Shown piece after piece: positions 28,537-34,410 of a DNA stretch of 64,000 nt (the first letter of the stretch is position 1; the number at the start of each line of letters is the position of its first letter). Position numbers and translations under genes: made by a program. Under the pieces are notes generated by a model. It searched no databases, had not been told where the DNA came from, and saw only the letters and a list, made by a program, of their open reading frames with translations. Source of the DNA: Fusobacterium necrophorum subsp. necrophorum (GTDB lineage Bacteria; Fusobacteriota; Fusobacteriia; Fusobacteriales; Fusobacteriaceae); assembly GCF_004006635.1 (NCBI RefSeq), contig NZ_CP034842.1:1984001-2048000 (forward strand). The letters are read 5' to 3'.

Positions 28537-28568
28537 TAAAAGGTACTGGAAAAATTCTAGTACCTTTT
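28537..28568. terminator. Bidirectional terminator between the M42 peptidase and bioC
   Basis: AAAAGGTACT (28537-28546) and AGTACCTTTT (28559-28568) are perfect complements. A-run on one side and T-run on the other let it work for both convergent genes. Confidence 0.85.
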
Positions 28569-29219
28569 TGCTTTAAAATATCCTACTCGATAGGTCAATG
28601 TTTTATGAGGATAGGAACGAATTTTATGAATATTGGTTTCTCCGATGCCGGTGACTCCTGTTGCCTGTAAATGGCGTAAGGAGGCAAGAGGGCTTGGAAA
28701 TTCCAGTGTAAATATTTCTTCCTGATATTCGACACATGGATAAGATTTTCTTAAATTGTGAATGGTGTCGGAAACACTTGGATAGTCTAGGCTAATTTGA
28801 AAGTGTTGTTTGATTTCTTTTAAATTATCTTCTAAAAACATTGAAAAAATTAAACAGTCTGTTTTGGGAGCAATTTTTTTCAAAAAACTCTGCAAATCAT
28901 AAAACCATTGGAAGCACCCGCTCGAAGTAATTAAATCATAGGATTTTAAAGACATGGTTTCGGCATTGTGCAAGATAAATTCCTGATAGTGTAAGTCGGA
29001 CAAAAAAGCGGAAGTATCAAAAATATCATTTAAACTCAAAGAAGCTTTCGGAAAATGTTCCACAATTTCACGAGAAAAAATTCCGGTTCCGCAACCAATT
29101 TCTAAAATAGTTTTTGGCGACTTATCCAGATCGGTCAAAAAGTGAGCTAATTTTTTGGCTACTTTTTTTTGCACAATAGCATTTTCTTCATAGCTCTTAA
29201 AATGTTTCTCAAAGGTCAT
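28557..29219 (-). CDS. bioC: Malonyl-[acyl-carrier protein] O-methyltransferase
   Basis: A 220-residue SAM-dependent methyltransferase. The SAM loop LEIGCGTGIFSREI is at residues about 39-52, and LITSSGCFQWFYDL is the usual BioC post-motif region. BioC methylates the free carboxyl of malonyl-ACP so that fatty acid synthesis can extend it to the pimeloyl stage. The gene overlaps the end of bioG by 11 bp, and bioG overlaps bioF, so F-G-C form an operon. The C-terminal half is less conserved; the operon settles the assignment. Confidence 0.88.
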   Translation of the reverse strand: MTFEKHFKSYEENAIVQKKVAKKLAHFLTDLDKSPKTILEIGCGTGIFSREIVEHFPKASLSLNDIFDTSAFLSDLHYQEFILHNAETMSLKSYDLITSSGCFQWFYDLQSFLKKIAPKTDCLIFSMFLEDNLKEIKQHFQISLDYPSVSDTIHNLRKSYPCVEYQEEIFTLEFPSPLASLRHLQATGVTGIGETNIHKIRSYPHKTLTYRVGYFKAKRY

Positions 29220-29805
29220 CTGTAGTATCTCCTAATAATTCTAAAAAATTTTGAAAATAATGAAAAGGATAATGCCCACCCGGAAAGATACGATAAGGGA
29301 CTTTTTCTTTTTCATAATATCGAATCAATTTTTTGGCGGAGAAAATTCGATCTTCTTCTCCAATCCAAGCAAAGTCAAAAGGATTTGCAGGAACTTGATA
29401 GTTTTTATAAAAAAATTCCAATTCTTCCCGAATATCTGTAAAATTTTTTGAAATGCTTCCATGAAAATCCATATTTTTATAAAAAGCAAGCAGACTTTCC
29501 GGACTTAGCGTATCTAGAGTGAATTTACACATTTTTGGTAAAATTCCATAGGGACCCAAGCTTTCAGGAAGTCCGTTCAATACAATTTTTTTGCGAAAAC
29601 GGTTTTGAATTTCTGTTGGAAGTTTGGAAAAGTAATAGGCTCCAAACGACCAGGCAACAGCATACAAAGTATCATTTTCATGTTTTTTTAATAAAGTTTC
29701 TATCCTGTCATAAGGATAATTGATAATTTCCACTTGATCTAAAGAGAGATGAGGAAATGCCTCTTCCGTCATTCCCCAACCGTTAAAAAAGAAAATCCAT
29801 TTCAT
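29209..29805 (-). CDS. bioG: Pimeloyl-[acyl-carrier protein] methyl ester esterase BioG
   Basis: A 198-residue alpha/beta hydrolase of the DUF452/BioG type. It removes the methyl group placed by BioC to give pimeloyl-ACP. FFFNGWGMTE forms the oxyanion region, the nucleophile elbow AWSFGAYY has Ser53, and a late GGHYPFHYF supplies the catalytic His. BioG replaces BioH in many anaerobes. The ribosome binding site AAAGGAG lies inside the bioF 3' end, and the gene overlaps both neighbours. Confidence 0.88.
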   Translation of the reverse strand: MKWIFFFNGWGMTEEAFPHLSLDQVEIINYPYDRIETLLKKHENDTLYAVAWSFGAYYFSKLPTEIQNRFRKKIVLNGLPESLGPYGILPKMCKFTLDTLSPESLLAFYKNMDFHGSISKNFTDIREELEFFYKNYQVPANPFDFAWIGEEDRIFSAKKLIRYYEKEKVPYRIFPGGHYPFHYFQNFLELLGDTTDDL

Positions 29806-30904
29806 AGCGAAGCTCCTTTACAAAACGTTTTATTTCTTCTTCCGGAATGGAAGAAGTGAGGCTCAGACGTAATCTTGCCGTATTTTTAGGAACGGTCGGT
29901 TCCTTGATTGCCTGAATTAAAAATCCTTTTTGTAATAAGGCTTTGGACAAGCGGTTGGCTTTTTCATTTTCCCCGATGACAATGCTCACAATATGAGTAG
30001 TCGATGTTGTAGGGATGTTTTCTTCTTTCAATAATTGATATATTAGTTTTTGTTTTCGAAACAGTTCTTGCCGTTCTTTTTCAAAGTCCGCCATATGAGT
30101 TAAGATAAAATAATTCCAAGCATGATTTACCGGGGGCAGAGCGGTAGAGTAAATAAATTTTCGACTTCGATTGATTAAATATTGTTTGGCGATTTCATCG
30201 CAAAGTACAAAAGCTCCCATAGAGGCTCCTCCCTTTCCCAAAGGAAGAATCAGATAATCAATATCGGAAAGCAGATGTTTTTCGTAGGCGATTCCATAAC
30301 CATATACTGCATAAGAGTGAGCTTCATCAATCATAAGTTGCACTCCGTATTGTTTTTTCAGGGTAACCAGTGTTTCTAAATCTGCACAATCTCCGTCCAT
30401 GCTGTAAACGGATTCTGAAACAATGAGAATATCTTCGTATTGATTTTTGTATTTTTGCAATAAGTTTTCCAGAGCCTTCATATTTAAATGAGAATAACGT
30501 AAAAATTTGGACTCGGAAGCAAGAATTCCGTCATAGATGCTCGCATGATTTAAGCGATCCGTTAAAATTAAGCTTTTTTTAGAAAAAATAGTCTCAATGA
30601 CAGAGGAGTTTGCATCAAAACCGGAATTAAAACAAAGAGCGGGCTTTGCATAGATTTCTTCTATTTTTCTCTCCAATTCCATAACAATTGCATAGGAACC
30701 GTCAATCAAACGGGAAGAAGAAGAAGATAAGGCCAAATAAGGATATTCTTCATAAAACTTCTTTCGTAAGGGAAGTTGCCCCGCTAAGCCCAGATAATCA
30801 TTGGAAGAGAAGTTGGTCATATTACCGGGTTTTGTTTCTACTTTTCGTAACCTGTTCTCTTGTTCAAAATGATTTAATTCCTCTTGCATTTCTGTCAATT
30901 TCAT
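29783..30904 (-). CDS. bioF: 8-Amino-7-oxononanoate synthase
   Basis: A 373-residue PLP enzyme of the alpha-oxoamine synthase family that joins pimeloyl-ACP and alanine. Visible: NFSSNDYLGLAG, GSYAIVMELE, the cofactor segment DEAHSYAVYG (PLP ring Asp) and the lysine segment ILPLGKGGASMGA. The ATG at 30904 lies 9 bp after AAGGAG; an in-frame ATG at 30910 is only 3 bp from it. First gene of bioF-bioG-bioC. A TATAAT box (fwd about 30934-30939) in the gap upstream may be its promoter. Confidence 0.92.
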   Translation of the reverse strand: MKLTEMQEELNHFEQENRLRKVETKPGNMTNFSSNDYLGLAGQLPLRKKFYEEYPYLALSSSSSRLIDGSYAIVMELERKIEEIYAKPALCFNSGFDANSSVIETIFSKKSLILTDRLNHASIYDGILASESKFLRYSHLNMKALENLLQKYKNQYEDILIVSESVYSMDGDCADLETLVTLKKQYGVQLMIDEAHSYAVYGYGIAYEKHLLSDIDYLILPLGKGGASMGAFVLCDEIAKQYLINRSRKFIYSTALPPVNHAWNYFILTHMADFEKERQELFRKQKLIYQLLKEENIPTTSTTHIVSIVIGENEKANRLSKALLQKGFLIQAIKEPTVPKNTARLRLSLTSSIPEEEIKRFVKELRYEMDFLF

Positions 30905-30956
30905 AGTCATACTCTCCTTTTTTTACCAGCTTATTATATCACAAAATTAAAAAAAA

Positions 30957-31980: not shown

Positions 31981-32412
31981 CTACCATTGAATAATCTTGG
32001 AAGCATGGAAAAGCTTCTCGATAATTTCTTCCATTCCGGCAAAACGTCCAATGGGAATATTATTATTTATTTTATAATATTCTGCTGAAGTTTTGCAAGT
32101 CAAAATTTCAATATTTTTTTGTTCCAATAATCTGAAAAAGTGTAAAAATTCAGATTCCCTTTGGTTGCATAAAACAGTTTTTTGAGACAAAATGATAGTT
32201 TTAGGAAGTAATTCCTGTTGGGATAAAGTGCACAGTAATTCTTTTAACAATAGAATGGACAAATCTTTTGTTCCCATATCTAAGGTTTTTCCGTGAAGAA
32301 AAAGCACAATATTGTTTTCCAGGCTTTCCAATTGTTTATCATTTAAAATCTTGTAAATGGATAAATCAAATTCCGGATTATTTTGTAATAGTGCTGCCAA
32401 ATCTTTTTTCAT
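31981..32412 (-). CDS. YedF-like DsrE-fold protein lacking the TusA domain
   Basis: A 143-residue protein resembling the C-terminal domain of YedF, the selenium-linked sulfurtransferase-like protein. Shared features are the FLHGKTLDMGTKDLSILLL segment, LPKTIILSQK, the cysteine in KNIEILTCKTSAEYY and the closing LFHASKIIQW. Full YedF proteins have an N-terminal TusA domain of about 70 residues; here only some 30 unrelated residues precede the core. It overlaps the AroB-Ppx gene by 4 bp, so it is translated from the same mRNA. Role unknown. Confidence 0.7.
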   Translation of the reverse strand: MKKDLAALLQNNPEFDLSIYKILNDKQLESLENNIVLFLHGKTLDMGTKDLSILLLKELLCTLSQQELLPKTIILSQKTVLCNQRESEFLHFFRLLEQKNIEILTCKTSAEYYKINNNIPIGRFAGMEEIIEKLFHASKIIQW

Positions 32413-34388
32413 AGTATCATAGCTCCCATTAAATTATCATATTCTGAAATTGTCATACTATCTTGTTGTAAATAGAGAAGAATCGTTTGTAAAATGATAG
32501 TACCGGCAATAATAACATTCGCTCTTTTTGCTTCCAAACCGATAATTTTTTGCCTTTCTTCCAAAGATTTGGAAAGAAATAACATTAAATTTTTTTCCAG
32601 TTGTTCTATCGAAAGTGTCGAGAGATGAACGAGTTCTCTTCGATATTGTTTCATTTCTTTTGCCACAGATATTTGTGTGGTAGCTGTTCCCGCAACTCCA
32701 ATGACTTTGAAGTTTTCTTTTCTAAGAGGCTTCAAGAAATCCAATTGTTCCAAAATCCATTTTTTACATTGAGTAATAGCTTCTGAAGAATAGTTCTGAT
32801 TTGGAAAAAAGAGTTCTGTAGCACGAACAGCACCTATGTTGATACTTTTGGAAAAGAAAATAGAAGCATTTTTTCCGAGAGTAAACTCGGTAGAACCTCC
32901 TCCAATGTCTATAATTAAAATCTGTTCCGGGACGGCGAGACTTACCCCGCGAAAATTATATTCCGCCTCTGTTTCTCCGGAAATGCAATGAATTTGAATC
33001 CCCGTCTCTTGAAAAACTTTTTGAATAAAAAAATCTCGATTTTCAGCATCTCTTGTAGCGGAAGTAGCAAAACAATAGAGAGAAGAGCAAGCATAGTCTC
33101 GTATCGTATTTGCATAATTTTTTAGACAGTTTATGGTTCTATCCATAGCATGTTTTTGCAATCTTTTTGTCTGATTGACTCCTTCTCCCAATTGTACAAT
33201 TTGTACTTCCTGATGTAAATGTCTCATAATTTGATGAGTATCCGCTTGCCGTTCCGCAATATAAAGACGACAGGAATTGGTTCCGATATCAATCACTGCT
33301 TTCACTTCATTATGAGGCTGTTGTGTTAAATAGTCTTCCGTGAATTGTTTGTGTATTTCCTGTACTGTAAAATTTTTTTCTTCTTCCCGCTTTTTCAAAT
33401 AGATACTGTTGATTTTTGAAAAAGCATTCTTTTTATCCTGTTTCATGGCTTCCCATAAAGCTTTGAAAGGAAATAGAATCGGAGTGCTGTCAATAGAATA
33501 TAGGTGAAAAATACGCTTTATTTTTTCAAAGTATTCCTTTGTCAAAAAACCTTGACGATAGGAAACATATACATCTAAAAGACAGCCTTTTGCCACCGCT
33601 TCTCCATGAGAAATATTTTTATATTGAAATAAACTCTCTAAAGCATGAGCATAGGTATGCCCGAAGTTTAAGAAAGCACGAATTCCTTGTTCTTTCATAT
33701 CTTTTTCTACATAGTATTGTTTGATTCGGCAAGATTGTTCCACAAGGGAGATGAGAGTATCTTCTTCTTTCTCCTGAATTGCTTCATAATTTCGATATAA
33801 GAAATCGGAATATTTCTCATCACAAGATAAAATGGAATGTTTGATAACTTCAGCCATTCCGGACTGAAATTGTGTTTCCTCTAAAGTATCAAGGAAACTG
33901 ACATCAATCAGAACCGCTTTCGGATTGTAAAAGAAACCGATTAAATTTTTTCCGGTAGAATGATTGACAGCTACTTTTCCTCCGATACTCGCATCCACTT
34001 GTGCCAGCAAGGAAGTGGGAAGTTGGATAAAATCAATTCCTCGCATAAAACTTGCCGCAACAAATCCACCTATGTCACAGATAACTCCACCACCAAAACA
34101 TAGAATACAAGACTTTCTGGAAAAATGTTTTTCTATCATAAAATCGTAAATTTTTTGAACGGAGTCTAAGGTTTTATATTCTTCTCCGTCCGGAAGTAAA
34201 AAATATTCCGTTTTTTCAGAGGCAATGTTCTGCTGATACCAATCTCCATAATAAGAAAAAAGAGTGTCATTACTCAAAAACAGAAGTTTATCATATTTTT
34301 TGGTAAAAGAATGTACCTTGTGTAAAAAATGAGAACCGATCAAAATGGGATAGTCATCCGTTTTTGTGTGAATTAAAATTTCTTTCAT
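32409..34388 (-). CDS. aroB: Fusion of 3-dehydroquinate synthase (AroB) and Ppx/GppA phosphatase
   Basis: A 659-residue single open frame. Residues 1 to about 345 are AroB, the NAD- and metal-dependent second shikimate enzyme: CFGGGVICDIGGFVAASFMRG, QVDASIGGK, GMAEVIKH and the metal motif NFGHTYAHALE are intact. Residues about 352-659 are a Ppx/GppA phosphatase (polyphosphate or pppGpp): IDIGTNSCRLYIAE, FATSATRDAEN, SGETEAEYNFRG and IIDIGGGSTEFTLG are intact, with no C-terminal HD domain. The ATG at 34388 follows AAGGAGG. No stop or frameshift separates the halves. This pairing is not one I know as standard; whether the protein is cut after synthesis is unknown. Confidence 0.9.
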   Translation of the reverse strand: MKEILIHTKTDDYPILIGSHFLHKVHSFTKKYDKLLFLSNDTLFSYYGDWYQQNIASEKTEYFLLPDGEEYKTLDSVQKIYDFMIEKHFSRKSCILCFGGGVICDIGGFVAASFMRGIDFIQLPTSLLAQVDASIGGKVAVNHSTGKNLIGFFYNPKAVLIDVSFLDTLEETQFQSGMAEVIKHSILSCDEKYSDFLYRNYEAIQEKEEDTLISLVEQSCRIKQYYVEKDMKEQGIRAFLNFGHTYAHALESLFQYKNISHGEAVAKGCLLDVYVSYRQGFLTKEYFEKIKRIFHLYSIDSTPILFPFKALWEAMKQDKKNAFSKINSIYLKKREEEKNFTVQEIHKQFTEDYLTQQPHNEVKAVIDIGTNSCRLYIAERQADTHQIMRHLHQEVQIVQLGEGVNQTKRLQKHAMDRTINCLKNYANTIRDYACSSLYCFATSATRDAENRDFFIQKVFQETGIQIHCISGETEAEYNFRGVSLAVPEQILIIDIGGGSTEFTLGKNASIFFSKSINIGAVRATELFFPNQNYSSEAITQCKKWILEQLDFLKPLRKENFKVIGVAGTATTQISVAKEMKQYRRELVHLSTLSIEQLEKNLMLFLSKSLEERQKIIGLEAKRANVIIAGTIILQTILLYLQQDSMTISEYDNLMGAMIL

Positions 34389-34410
34389 GCTTTGCCTCCT
34401 TATATTACTT

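What the first reader, a model, noticed from the sequence alone, without database searches (positions are those of the whole stretch)
32409..34388. AroB fused to a Ppx/GppA phosphatase in one open frame
The sequence shows an intact 3-dehydroquinate synthase followed, without stop or frameshift, by an intact Ppx/GppA domain. The families are unrelated in metabolism: one makes aromatic precursors, the other hydrolyses polyphosphate or pppGpp. Both sets of catalytic motifs are kept, so both activities may be real. A fusion could link shikimate flux to phosphate or stringent signalling, or release Pi/pyrophosphate control at one site. I do not know this pairing as a described one.
Basis: partly seen in the sequence, partly recalled or inferred. 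Interest (0 to 1): 0.75.

Follow-up and report, generated by a model that had tools for sequence, protein, structure and literature searches.

The report
Fusobacterial aromatic-synthesis enzyme fused to phosphatase
In this bacterial family, an enzyme that makes aromatic building blocks is joined into one protein with a phosphatase of the kind that acts on stress signals or polyphosphate; the joining is real and old, but what the link does is unknown.

Summary
One uninterrupted 659-codon frame (34388 to 32409, minus strand) encodes a complete 3-dehydroquinate synthase (DHQS, AroB) followed by a complete short Ppx/GppA phosphatase. The same single-frame fusion occurs in 40 of 98 genomes of the phylum, 39 of one family and one of another, so it is no artefact. 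The AroB halves form one clade, so one fusion fits; AroB was later lost in several lineages while Ppx stayed. How far it occurs in other phyla is largely untested.

In 39 of the 40 genomes no other AroB was found, and 36 of 40 have chorismate synthase: it is very probably the working shikimate enzyme. The window's genome has a second AroB in an apparent mobile biosynthetic cluster. One genus (three genomes) lacks aroA and aroC; there the AroB half has lost 11-12 of 18 active-site residues but is still an open frame, under purifying selection in the one testable pair.

The Ppx substrate is unproven. This genome has RelA/SpoT but no polyphosphate kinase over cut-off, which favours pppGpp. A functional link between the halves remains a hypothesis.

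The parts
34389..34401 (-). ribosome-binding site AAGGAGG (34395-34401) and 6-nt spacer before the ATG
   Evidence: read
32409..34388 (-). AroB-Ppx fusion gene, 659 aa plus TGA stop
33864..34199 (-). DHQ_synthase N-terminal Pfam domain, residues 64-175
   Evidence: E 2.6e-47
33426..33860 (-). DHQS_C C-terminal Pfam domain, residues 177-321
   Evidence: E 3.3e-39; 18 of 18 checked active-site, NAD and zinc positions of the AroB half intact
33309..33368 (-). linker, about residues 341-360, variable between relatives
   Evidence: alignment; model confidence 72 and 62 in the two blocks of ten, with segments under 50 just before it (319-326, 332-335)
32412..33308 (-). short Ppx/GppA phosphatase half, residues 361-659 (R446, E474, D494, E501 = catalytic and metal residues)
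   Evidence: residue roles from passages of PMC3411833; Foldseek best hit 1t6c
31981..32412 (-). 143-aa DsrE-type gene overlapping the fusion stop by ATGA; matches only the second half of YedF (profile 76-193 of 194, 69.7 bits against a cut-off of 110): read as a remnant of a selenium operon
   Evidence: selD-selA-selB-yedF follow the fusion in relatives such as L034 and L035

Best explanation
One polypeptide with two working enzymes joined by a short linker. The N-terminal half is the housekeeping 3-dehydroquinate synthase (DAHP to 3-dehydroquinate plus Pi). The C-terminal half is a short Ppx/GppA-type phosphatase that removes a terminal phosphate, most likely from pppGpp in genomes that have RelA/SpoT but no polyphosphate kinase. 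The fusion arose once, at or before the base of the Fusobacteriaceae, where an aroK-side gene order met a ppx/acylphosphatase/selenium-operon-side one. It was then inherited, with several later losses of the AroB half. Shown: one frame, both folds, intact residues, one AroB clade, no other AroB found in 39 of 40 fused genomes. Inferred: both activities, the substrate of the Ppx half, the place and time of the fusion, and absence of processing into two proteins. Any regulatory coupling is speculative.
For: One frame and two domains. Same fusion in 40 of 98 phylum genomes. 18 DHQS active-site, NAD and zinc positions intact in 37 of 40 fused and 20 of 20 unfused AroBs aligned. Four Ppx catalytic and metal residues intact in 62 of 62. 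Fused AroBs are one side of one branch, 100/98 support, 100% of 200 bootstrap trees. Only 1 of 40 fused genomes (G000) has another AroB match at E <= 0.001; 36 of 40 have aroC over cut-off and 35 of 40 aroA. The window genome's aroA-aroC-aroE-aroQ group contains no aroB. aroK directly upstream in 5 of 40. dN/dS of G000/G038 is 0.126 (AroB) and 0.178 (Ppx). RelA/SpoT over cut-off in 21 of 21 genomes tested, PPK2 in 0 of 21. PPK1 over cut-off in 16 of 40 fused genomes; G000 has only a 17.9-bit match. AF2 model folds match solved Ppx and DHQS.
Against: No biochemistry. A characterised homologue, M. tuberculosis Rv0496, hydrolyses short polyphosphate and not pppGpp (PMC3411833 abstract), so the pppGpp guess may be wrong. 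16 of 40 fused genomes do have PPK1. The window genome has a second intact AroB, so there the fused AroB could be redundant. AroB was lost several times, so the physical link is not essential. Some fused genomes are incomplete (G008 67%, G045 70%, G047 78%), so a second AroB could have been missed there.
Confidence: 0.78

Rival explanations
1. Fortuitous read-through fusion without functional coupling: two neighbouring genes (aroB, then ppx) lost the stop between them once. The fused gene works as two independent enzymes sharing expression, and persists by inertia.
For: Ppx is found alone, often in the same gene neighbourhood, in lineages that lost the AroB half. In G046 aroK lies directly before Ppx alone where its relative G045 has aroK followed by AroB-Ppx. 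The halves otherwise keep company with different gene sets (aroK/DAHP synthase versus selD-selA-selB).
Against: The link has lasted through 40 genomes, down to 35-37% identity to the window protein, and one genus keeps the AroB half after its catalytic residues and pathway are gone.
Confidence: 0.5
2. The AroB half also serves the phosphatase structurally or as a regulator (dimer scaffold or sensor), so the fusion couples shikimate flux or NAD/DAHP status to alarmone or phosphate turnover; in genus g12 only this second role is left.
For: In 3 of 3 g12 genomes, which lack aroA and aroC over cut-off, 11-12 of 18 active-site positions of AroB are replaced. Yet the domain still matches Pfam DHQ_synthase and DHQS_C over cut-off, has no stop, no indel over 308 codons between G050 and G051, and dN/dS 0.171 (0.100-0.261), the same as the Ppx half (0.171). 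A neutral simulation gave a mean of 6.6 or 10.3 stops at two distances.
Against: dS of 1.3-1.4 is near saturation, and the two pairs with G052 gave no finite dS, so one pair carries the selection test. Several lineages do without the AroB half. A dead domain can be kept merely because removing it would harm translation or folding.
Confidence: 0.3
3. The fused AroB is not the housekeeping enzyme in the window's organism; the unfused AroB elsewhere does that job.
For: A second AroB over the TIGR01357 cut-off (353.6 bits) with intact residues at G000:C1:2184090-2185031.
Against: That AroB sits with a serine recombinase and a phosphopantetheinyl transferase and with genes that I read as DAHP synthase, AroQ and an AMP ligase: an apparent mobile biosynthetic cluster. 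The sister genome G038 has only the fused AroB and has aroC and aroA.
Confidence: 0.1
4. Two separate proteins are made from the one frame (internal start or proteolysis).
For: Two GTG codons (-5 and -2) just before DIGTN in the window.
Against: Neither has a Shine-Dalgarno-like motif; a start with such a motif is found in 1 of 40 fusions in that stretch. Proteolysis was not testable.
Confidence: 0.08

Closest known systems
Bacterial AroB, 3-dehydroquinate synthase (TIGR01357; 3okf, 5eks)
   Same: passes the equivalog cut-off; all 18 positions checked are kept
   Different: carries a phosphatase of about 300 residues at its C-terminus
Short Ppx/GppA phosphatases: Aquifex aeolicus 1t6c/2j4r, M. 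tuberculosis Rv0496
   Same: Ppx half of 299 residues against 308-315 in the Aquifex chains; arginine and glutamate 28 residues apart and D/E 7 apart as in Rv0496; fold
   Different: fused behind AroB; substrate unknown; below the TIGR03706 cut-off
AroK-AroB fusions (PRK13951, PRK14021) and the AROM complex
   Same: DHQS as one domain of a multifunctional protein (families named)
   Different: partners there are enzymes of the same pathway; no kinase domain here, and the partner is from outside the pathway

Membership tests
3-dehydroquinate synthase (AroB) | score over the TIGR01357 equivalog cut-off | tested here: met
   338.3 bits against 305
3-dehydroquinate synthase (AroB) | NAD, metal (Glu, His, His) and substrate residues | tested here: met
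   18 of 18 kept in the window protein; the choice of positions and their Aspergillus numbers are recalled, not from a call
3-dehydroquinate synthase (AroB) | genome has the rest of the shikimate pathway | tested here: inconclusive
   aroA and aroC over cut-off, aroQ over cut-off, aroE below its cut-off (184.6 against 200.2) in G000; aroK and a housekeeping DAHP synthase were not searched for genome-wide
3-dehydroquinate synthase (AroB) | converts DAHP to 3-dehydroquinate | not testable with these tools
   needs assay
Ppx/GppA phosphatase | Pfam PF02541 over gathering score | tested here: met
   197.8 bits against 27
Ppx/GppA phosphatase | catalytic Arg and Glu, metal-binding Asp and Glu | tested here: met
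   R446, E474, D494, E501; kept in 62 of 62 aligned; roles as stated for Rv0496 in PMC3411833 (passages)
exopolyphosphatase subfamily TIGR03706 (exo_poly_only) | score over the curated cut-off | tested here: not met
   244.9 bits against 307; not filed as this subfamily
GppA (pppGpp hydrolase) | hydrolyses pppGpp | not testable with these tools
   only genome context: RelA/SpoT in 21 of 21, PPK2 in 0 of 21
AroK-AroB bifunctional enzyme | shikimate kinase domain in the same chain | tested here: not met
   no kinase domain in the chain; PRK13951 174.9 bits against 560

The most novel reading that the evidence does not exclude
The DHQS half acts as a built-in regulator or scaffold of an alarmone or phosphate phosphatase. 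The fusion would couple aromatic synthesis to stringent or phosphate signalling, and one fusobacterial genus has stripped it down to a catalytically dead DHQS 'pseudoenzyme' kept by selection purely for that role.
Probability: 0.22. Interest if true: 0.75.

Novelty: new variant of a known kind. Interest (0 to 1): 0.52.

Why it matters
The DHQS fusions that I know of (recalled) join steps of one pathway; this one joins a biosynthetic enzyme to a phosphatase of signalling or storage metabolism across a bacterial family. Evolution has supplied the controls: fused and apparently active, fused with a dead DHQS half, and Ppx alone at the same place. Whether a domain fusion between unlinked pathways is functional or inertial therefore becomes directly testable with three natural proteins.

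Tried and rejected
Rejected: assembly or frameshift artefact (40 genomes). Rejected: internal start for Ppx. Rejected: pseudogene remnant of AroB before the split Ppx genes (in 22 loci the best tblastn E upstream is 0.051 or worse, or no hit; two loci had a little under 1.2 kb and one, L055, had no upstream sequence). Rejected: selenium dependence of the fusion. SelD is downstream within 600 nt in 20 of 40, but 13 of 40 fused genomes, the window's included, lack selD over cut-off, and unfused Ppx genes of g5 and part of g6 have the same selenium neighbours, so that company belongs to the Ppx side.

The junction query found 0 of 299 (E <= 1e-38) and 0 of 395 (E <= 1e-33). The record titles of both centres read as Bacteroidota, so other phyla are nearly unsampled; whether the two centres lie in one phylum is not told. 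In the query's control 11 fused genomes gave 3.6e-231 to 2.6e-35: 9 of 11 would pass 1e-38 (G050 and G051 not) and 11 of 11 would pass 1e-33. Two Ppx-only genomes, G030 and G054, also pass both. In one search, 7 genomes outside the phylum showed AroB and Ppx matches in separate places, or Ppx alone in one. The viral scan for AroB gave one locus. The AF2 model has a thin alignment for the AroB half and pTM 0.57, so the relative placing of the halves is not interpretable. dN/dS for two of three g12 pairs has no finite dS.

Full report
OBSERVATION. The frame at 34388-32409 on the minus strand is open for 659 codons from an ATG preceded by AAGGAGG. Pfam finds DHQ_synthase (64-175), DHQS_C (177-321) and Ppx-GppA (383-650). 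NCBIfam puts the first half over the aroB equivalog cut-off (338.3 against 305). The second half scores 244.9 on exo_poly_only, below its 307. phmmer against the PDB finds DHQS chains within residues 1-347 and Ppx/GppA chains from about residue 357 on. An AlphaFold2 model (mean pLDDT 84.1, pTM 0.57) matches solved Ppx/GppA (1t6c, E 8.8e-27) and DHQS (3okf, E 3.8e-22) structures.

DISTRIBUTION. In 98 genomes of the phylum, 40 carry the whole fusion in one open frame: 39 as one match, G051 as two pieces in one 698-aa frame; all 40 were read as single ORFs. Thirty-nine are in family f1 and one (G062) in f2, another family of the order. f1 is Fusobacteriaceae: G049's locus has the same contig place and contig length as that of L093, titled uncultured Fusobacteriaceae. 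The window's species is not told by any search. Outside the phylum the evidence is thin. A query across the junction found nothing in 299 and 395 genomes, but both samples were drawn round records whose titles read as Bacteroidota, and its control shows that a g12-like fusion would be missed at the first threshold. Seven other genomes outside the phylum showed no fusion. Restriction to Fusobacteriota is not established.

HISTORY. In a tree of 60 AroB sequences the 40 fused ones are one side of a single branch (100/98; 100% of 200 bootstrap trees). In a tree of 62 Ppx sequences the fused ones are not one clade: six changes on the best tree, at least three forced by starred branches, and one-clade is rejected (p-AU 0.0004). 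Holding the unfused g6, g14 and g25 rows together is also rejected (p-AU 0.0018; that grouping was named after seeing the tree). The simplest reading is one fusion followed by several losses of the AroB half with Ppx left in place. Synteny agrees: the six unfused g5 genes keep selD downstream, and the M48 peptidase upstream in the five with upstream sequence. In G046 aroK stands directly before Ppx alone, where its relative G045 has aroK before AroB-Ppx; G046 has a separate AroB fragment at a contig end. Long branches are present in both trees. No AroB remnants were found before the split genes.

THE AroB HALF. All 18 checked positions (NAD loop, metal ligands, substrate residues; choice and Aspergillus numbering recalled) are intact in 37 of 40 fused and 20 of 20 unfused AroBs. 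Only G000, the window's genome, has another AroB match among the 40. aroC is over cut-off in 36 of 40; the exceptions are G008 (67% complete) and the three g12 genomes. aroA is over cut-off in 35 of 40; the exceptions are the three g12 genomes, G045 (70% complete) and G012, where it lies in two pieces. In G000 the aroA, aroC, aroE and aroQ genes lie together without aroB. The second AroB of G000 stands with a serine recombinase and a phosphopantetheinyl transferase and with genes that I read from their sequence as DAHP synthase, AroQ, a MATE transporter and an AMP ligase, so it looks like the supply gene of a mobile biosynthetic cluster; the ends of such an element were not sought. The fused AroB is thus very probably the housekeeping enzyme of the family.

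THE DEAD DHQS HALF. Genus g12 (G050, G051, G052) has neither aroC nor aroA over cut-off (one match of 75-81 bits each, which I take for MurA). Its fusions have 12, 11 and 11 of the 18 positions replaced, among them metal and substrate residues. They fall far below the aroB cut-off (135-165 against 305 bits), yet still match both DHQS Pfam domains over cut-off. The four Ppx residues are untouched. Between G050 and G051 the AroB half has no gap in 308 codons and dN/dS 0.171 (bootstrap 0.100-0.261), the Ppx half 0.171 (0.104-0.248). dS is 1.3-1.4, near saturation, and the two pairs with G052 gave no finite dS. A neutral simulation left 1 of 2000 and 0 of 2000 copies without a stop at two distances. 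The domain appears to be kept as a folded unit without its chemistry; the fold itself was not modelled.

THE Ppx HALF. The four residues named for Rv0496 in PMC3411833 (abstract, outline and passages seen) correspond by motif and spacing to R446, E474, D494 and E501 and are invariant in 62 of 62. PPK1 is over cut-off in 16 of 40 fused genomes; G000 has a 17.9-bit match only. Of 21 genomes chosen (19 of the 24 fused ones without PPK1 over cut-off, and two Ppx-only), 0 have PPK2 over cut-off and 21 have RelA/SpoT. This favours pppGpp over polyphosphate. [quoted passage not shown] The substrate is open.

NEIGHBOURHOOD. SelD lies within 600 nt downstream on the same strand in 20 of 40 fused genomes, aroK within 100 nt upstream in 5 of 40 (many loci had only 1.5 kb flanks). 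selD, selA, selB, yedF and DAHP synthase representatives pass NCBIfam cut-offs; for the aroK and acylphosphatase representatives these are the best-scoring families, below the equivalog cut-offs. In the window a truncated yedF overlaps the fusion stop and G000 has no selD over cut-off; selA and selB were not searched for. The selenium link is therefore read as old gene order on the Ppx side.

READING. Certain: a real, conserved fusion. Probable: two active enzymes in one chain. Open: whether the chain couples them. For inertia: repeated loss of the AroB half. For coupling or scaffold: the selected dead DHQS half in g12. Searches of the paper library (no papers; listings only, 12 of 26 shown) showed no description of the pairing; one search failed. 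I recall that databases may already label such proteins as bifunctional, but no call showed it.

Noticed in passing
G000:C1:2177090-2192031 (L073): Serine recombinase, phosphopantetheinyl transferase, DAHP synthase, AroQ, second AroB, MATE transporter, AMP-ligase-like and alcohol-dehydrogenase-like genes in a row: an apparent mobile biosynthetic cluster with its own early shikimate genes (several names are my reading of the sequence).
   Followed up: partly
window 31981-32412: A gene matching only the DsrE half of YedF, standing where relatives have selD-selA-selB-yedF; it still overlaps the fusion stop by ATGA.
   Followed up: partly
L048 7986-9191, L049 7995-9185 and the other unfused g5 genomes: After losing the AroB half, the Ppx proteins of this group are 396-409 aa and carry about 90 extra C-terminal residues, outside the Pfam Ppx match in the one tested (L048).
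   Followed up: no
G050 and G051 against G052 (L046, L052, L045): Within one genus group the fusion gene has G+C of 0.56 and 0.54 in two genomes and 0.28 in the third.
   Followed up: no
selD genes of the phylum: 48 of 57 selD matches over cut-off are read through one in-frame TGA, as expected for a selenocysteine-containing SelD.
   Followed up: no
window 28557-30910: bioF-like, BioG-like (barely over its Pfam cut-off) and bioC-like genes form an apparent biotin group downstream of the fusion and hutG; bioF and bioC score below their NCBIfam cut-offs.
   Followed up: partly
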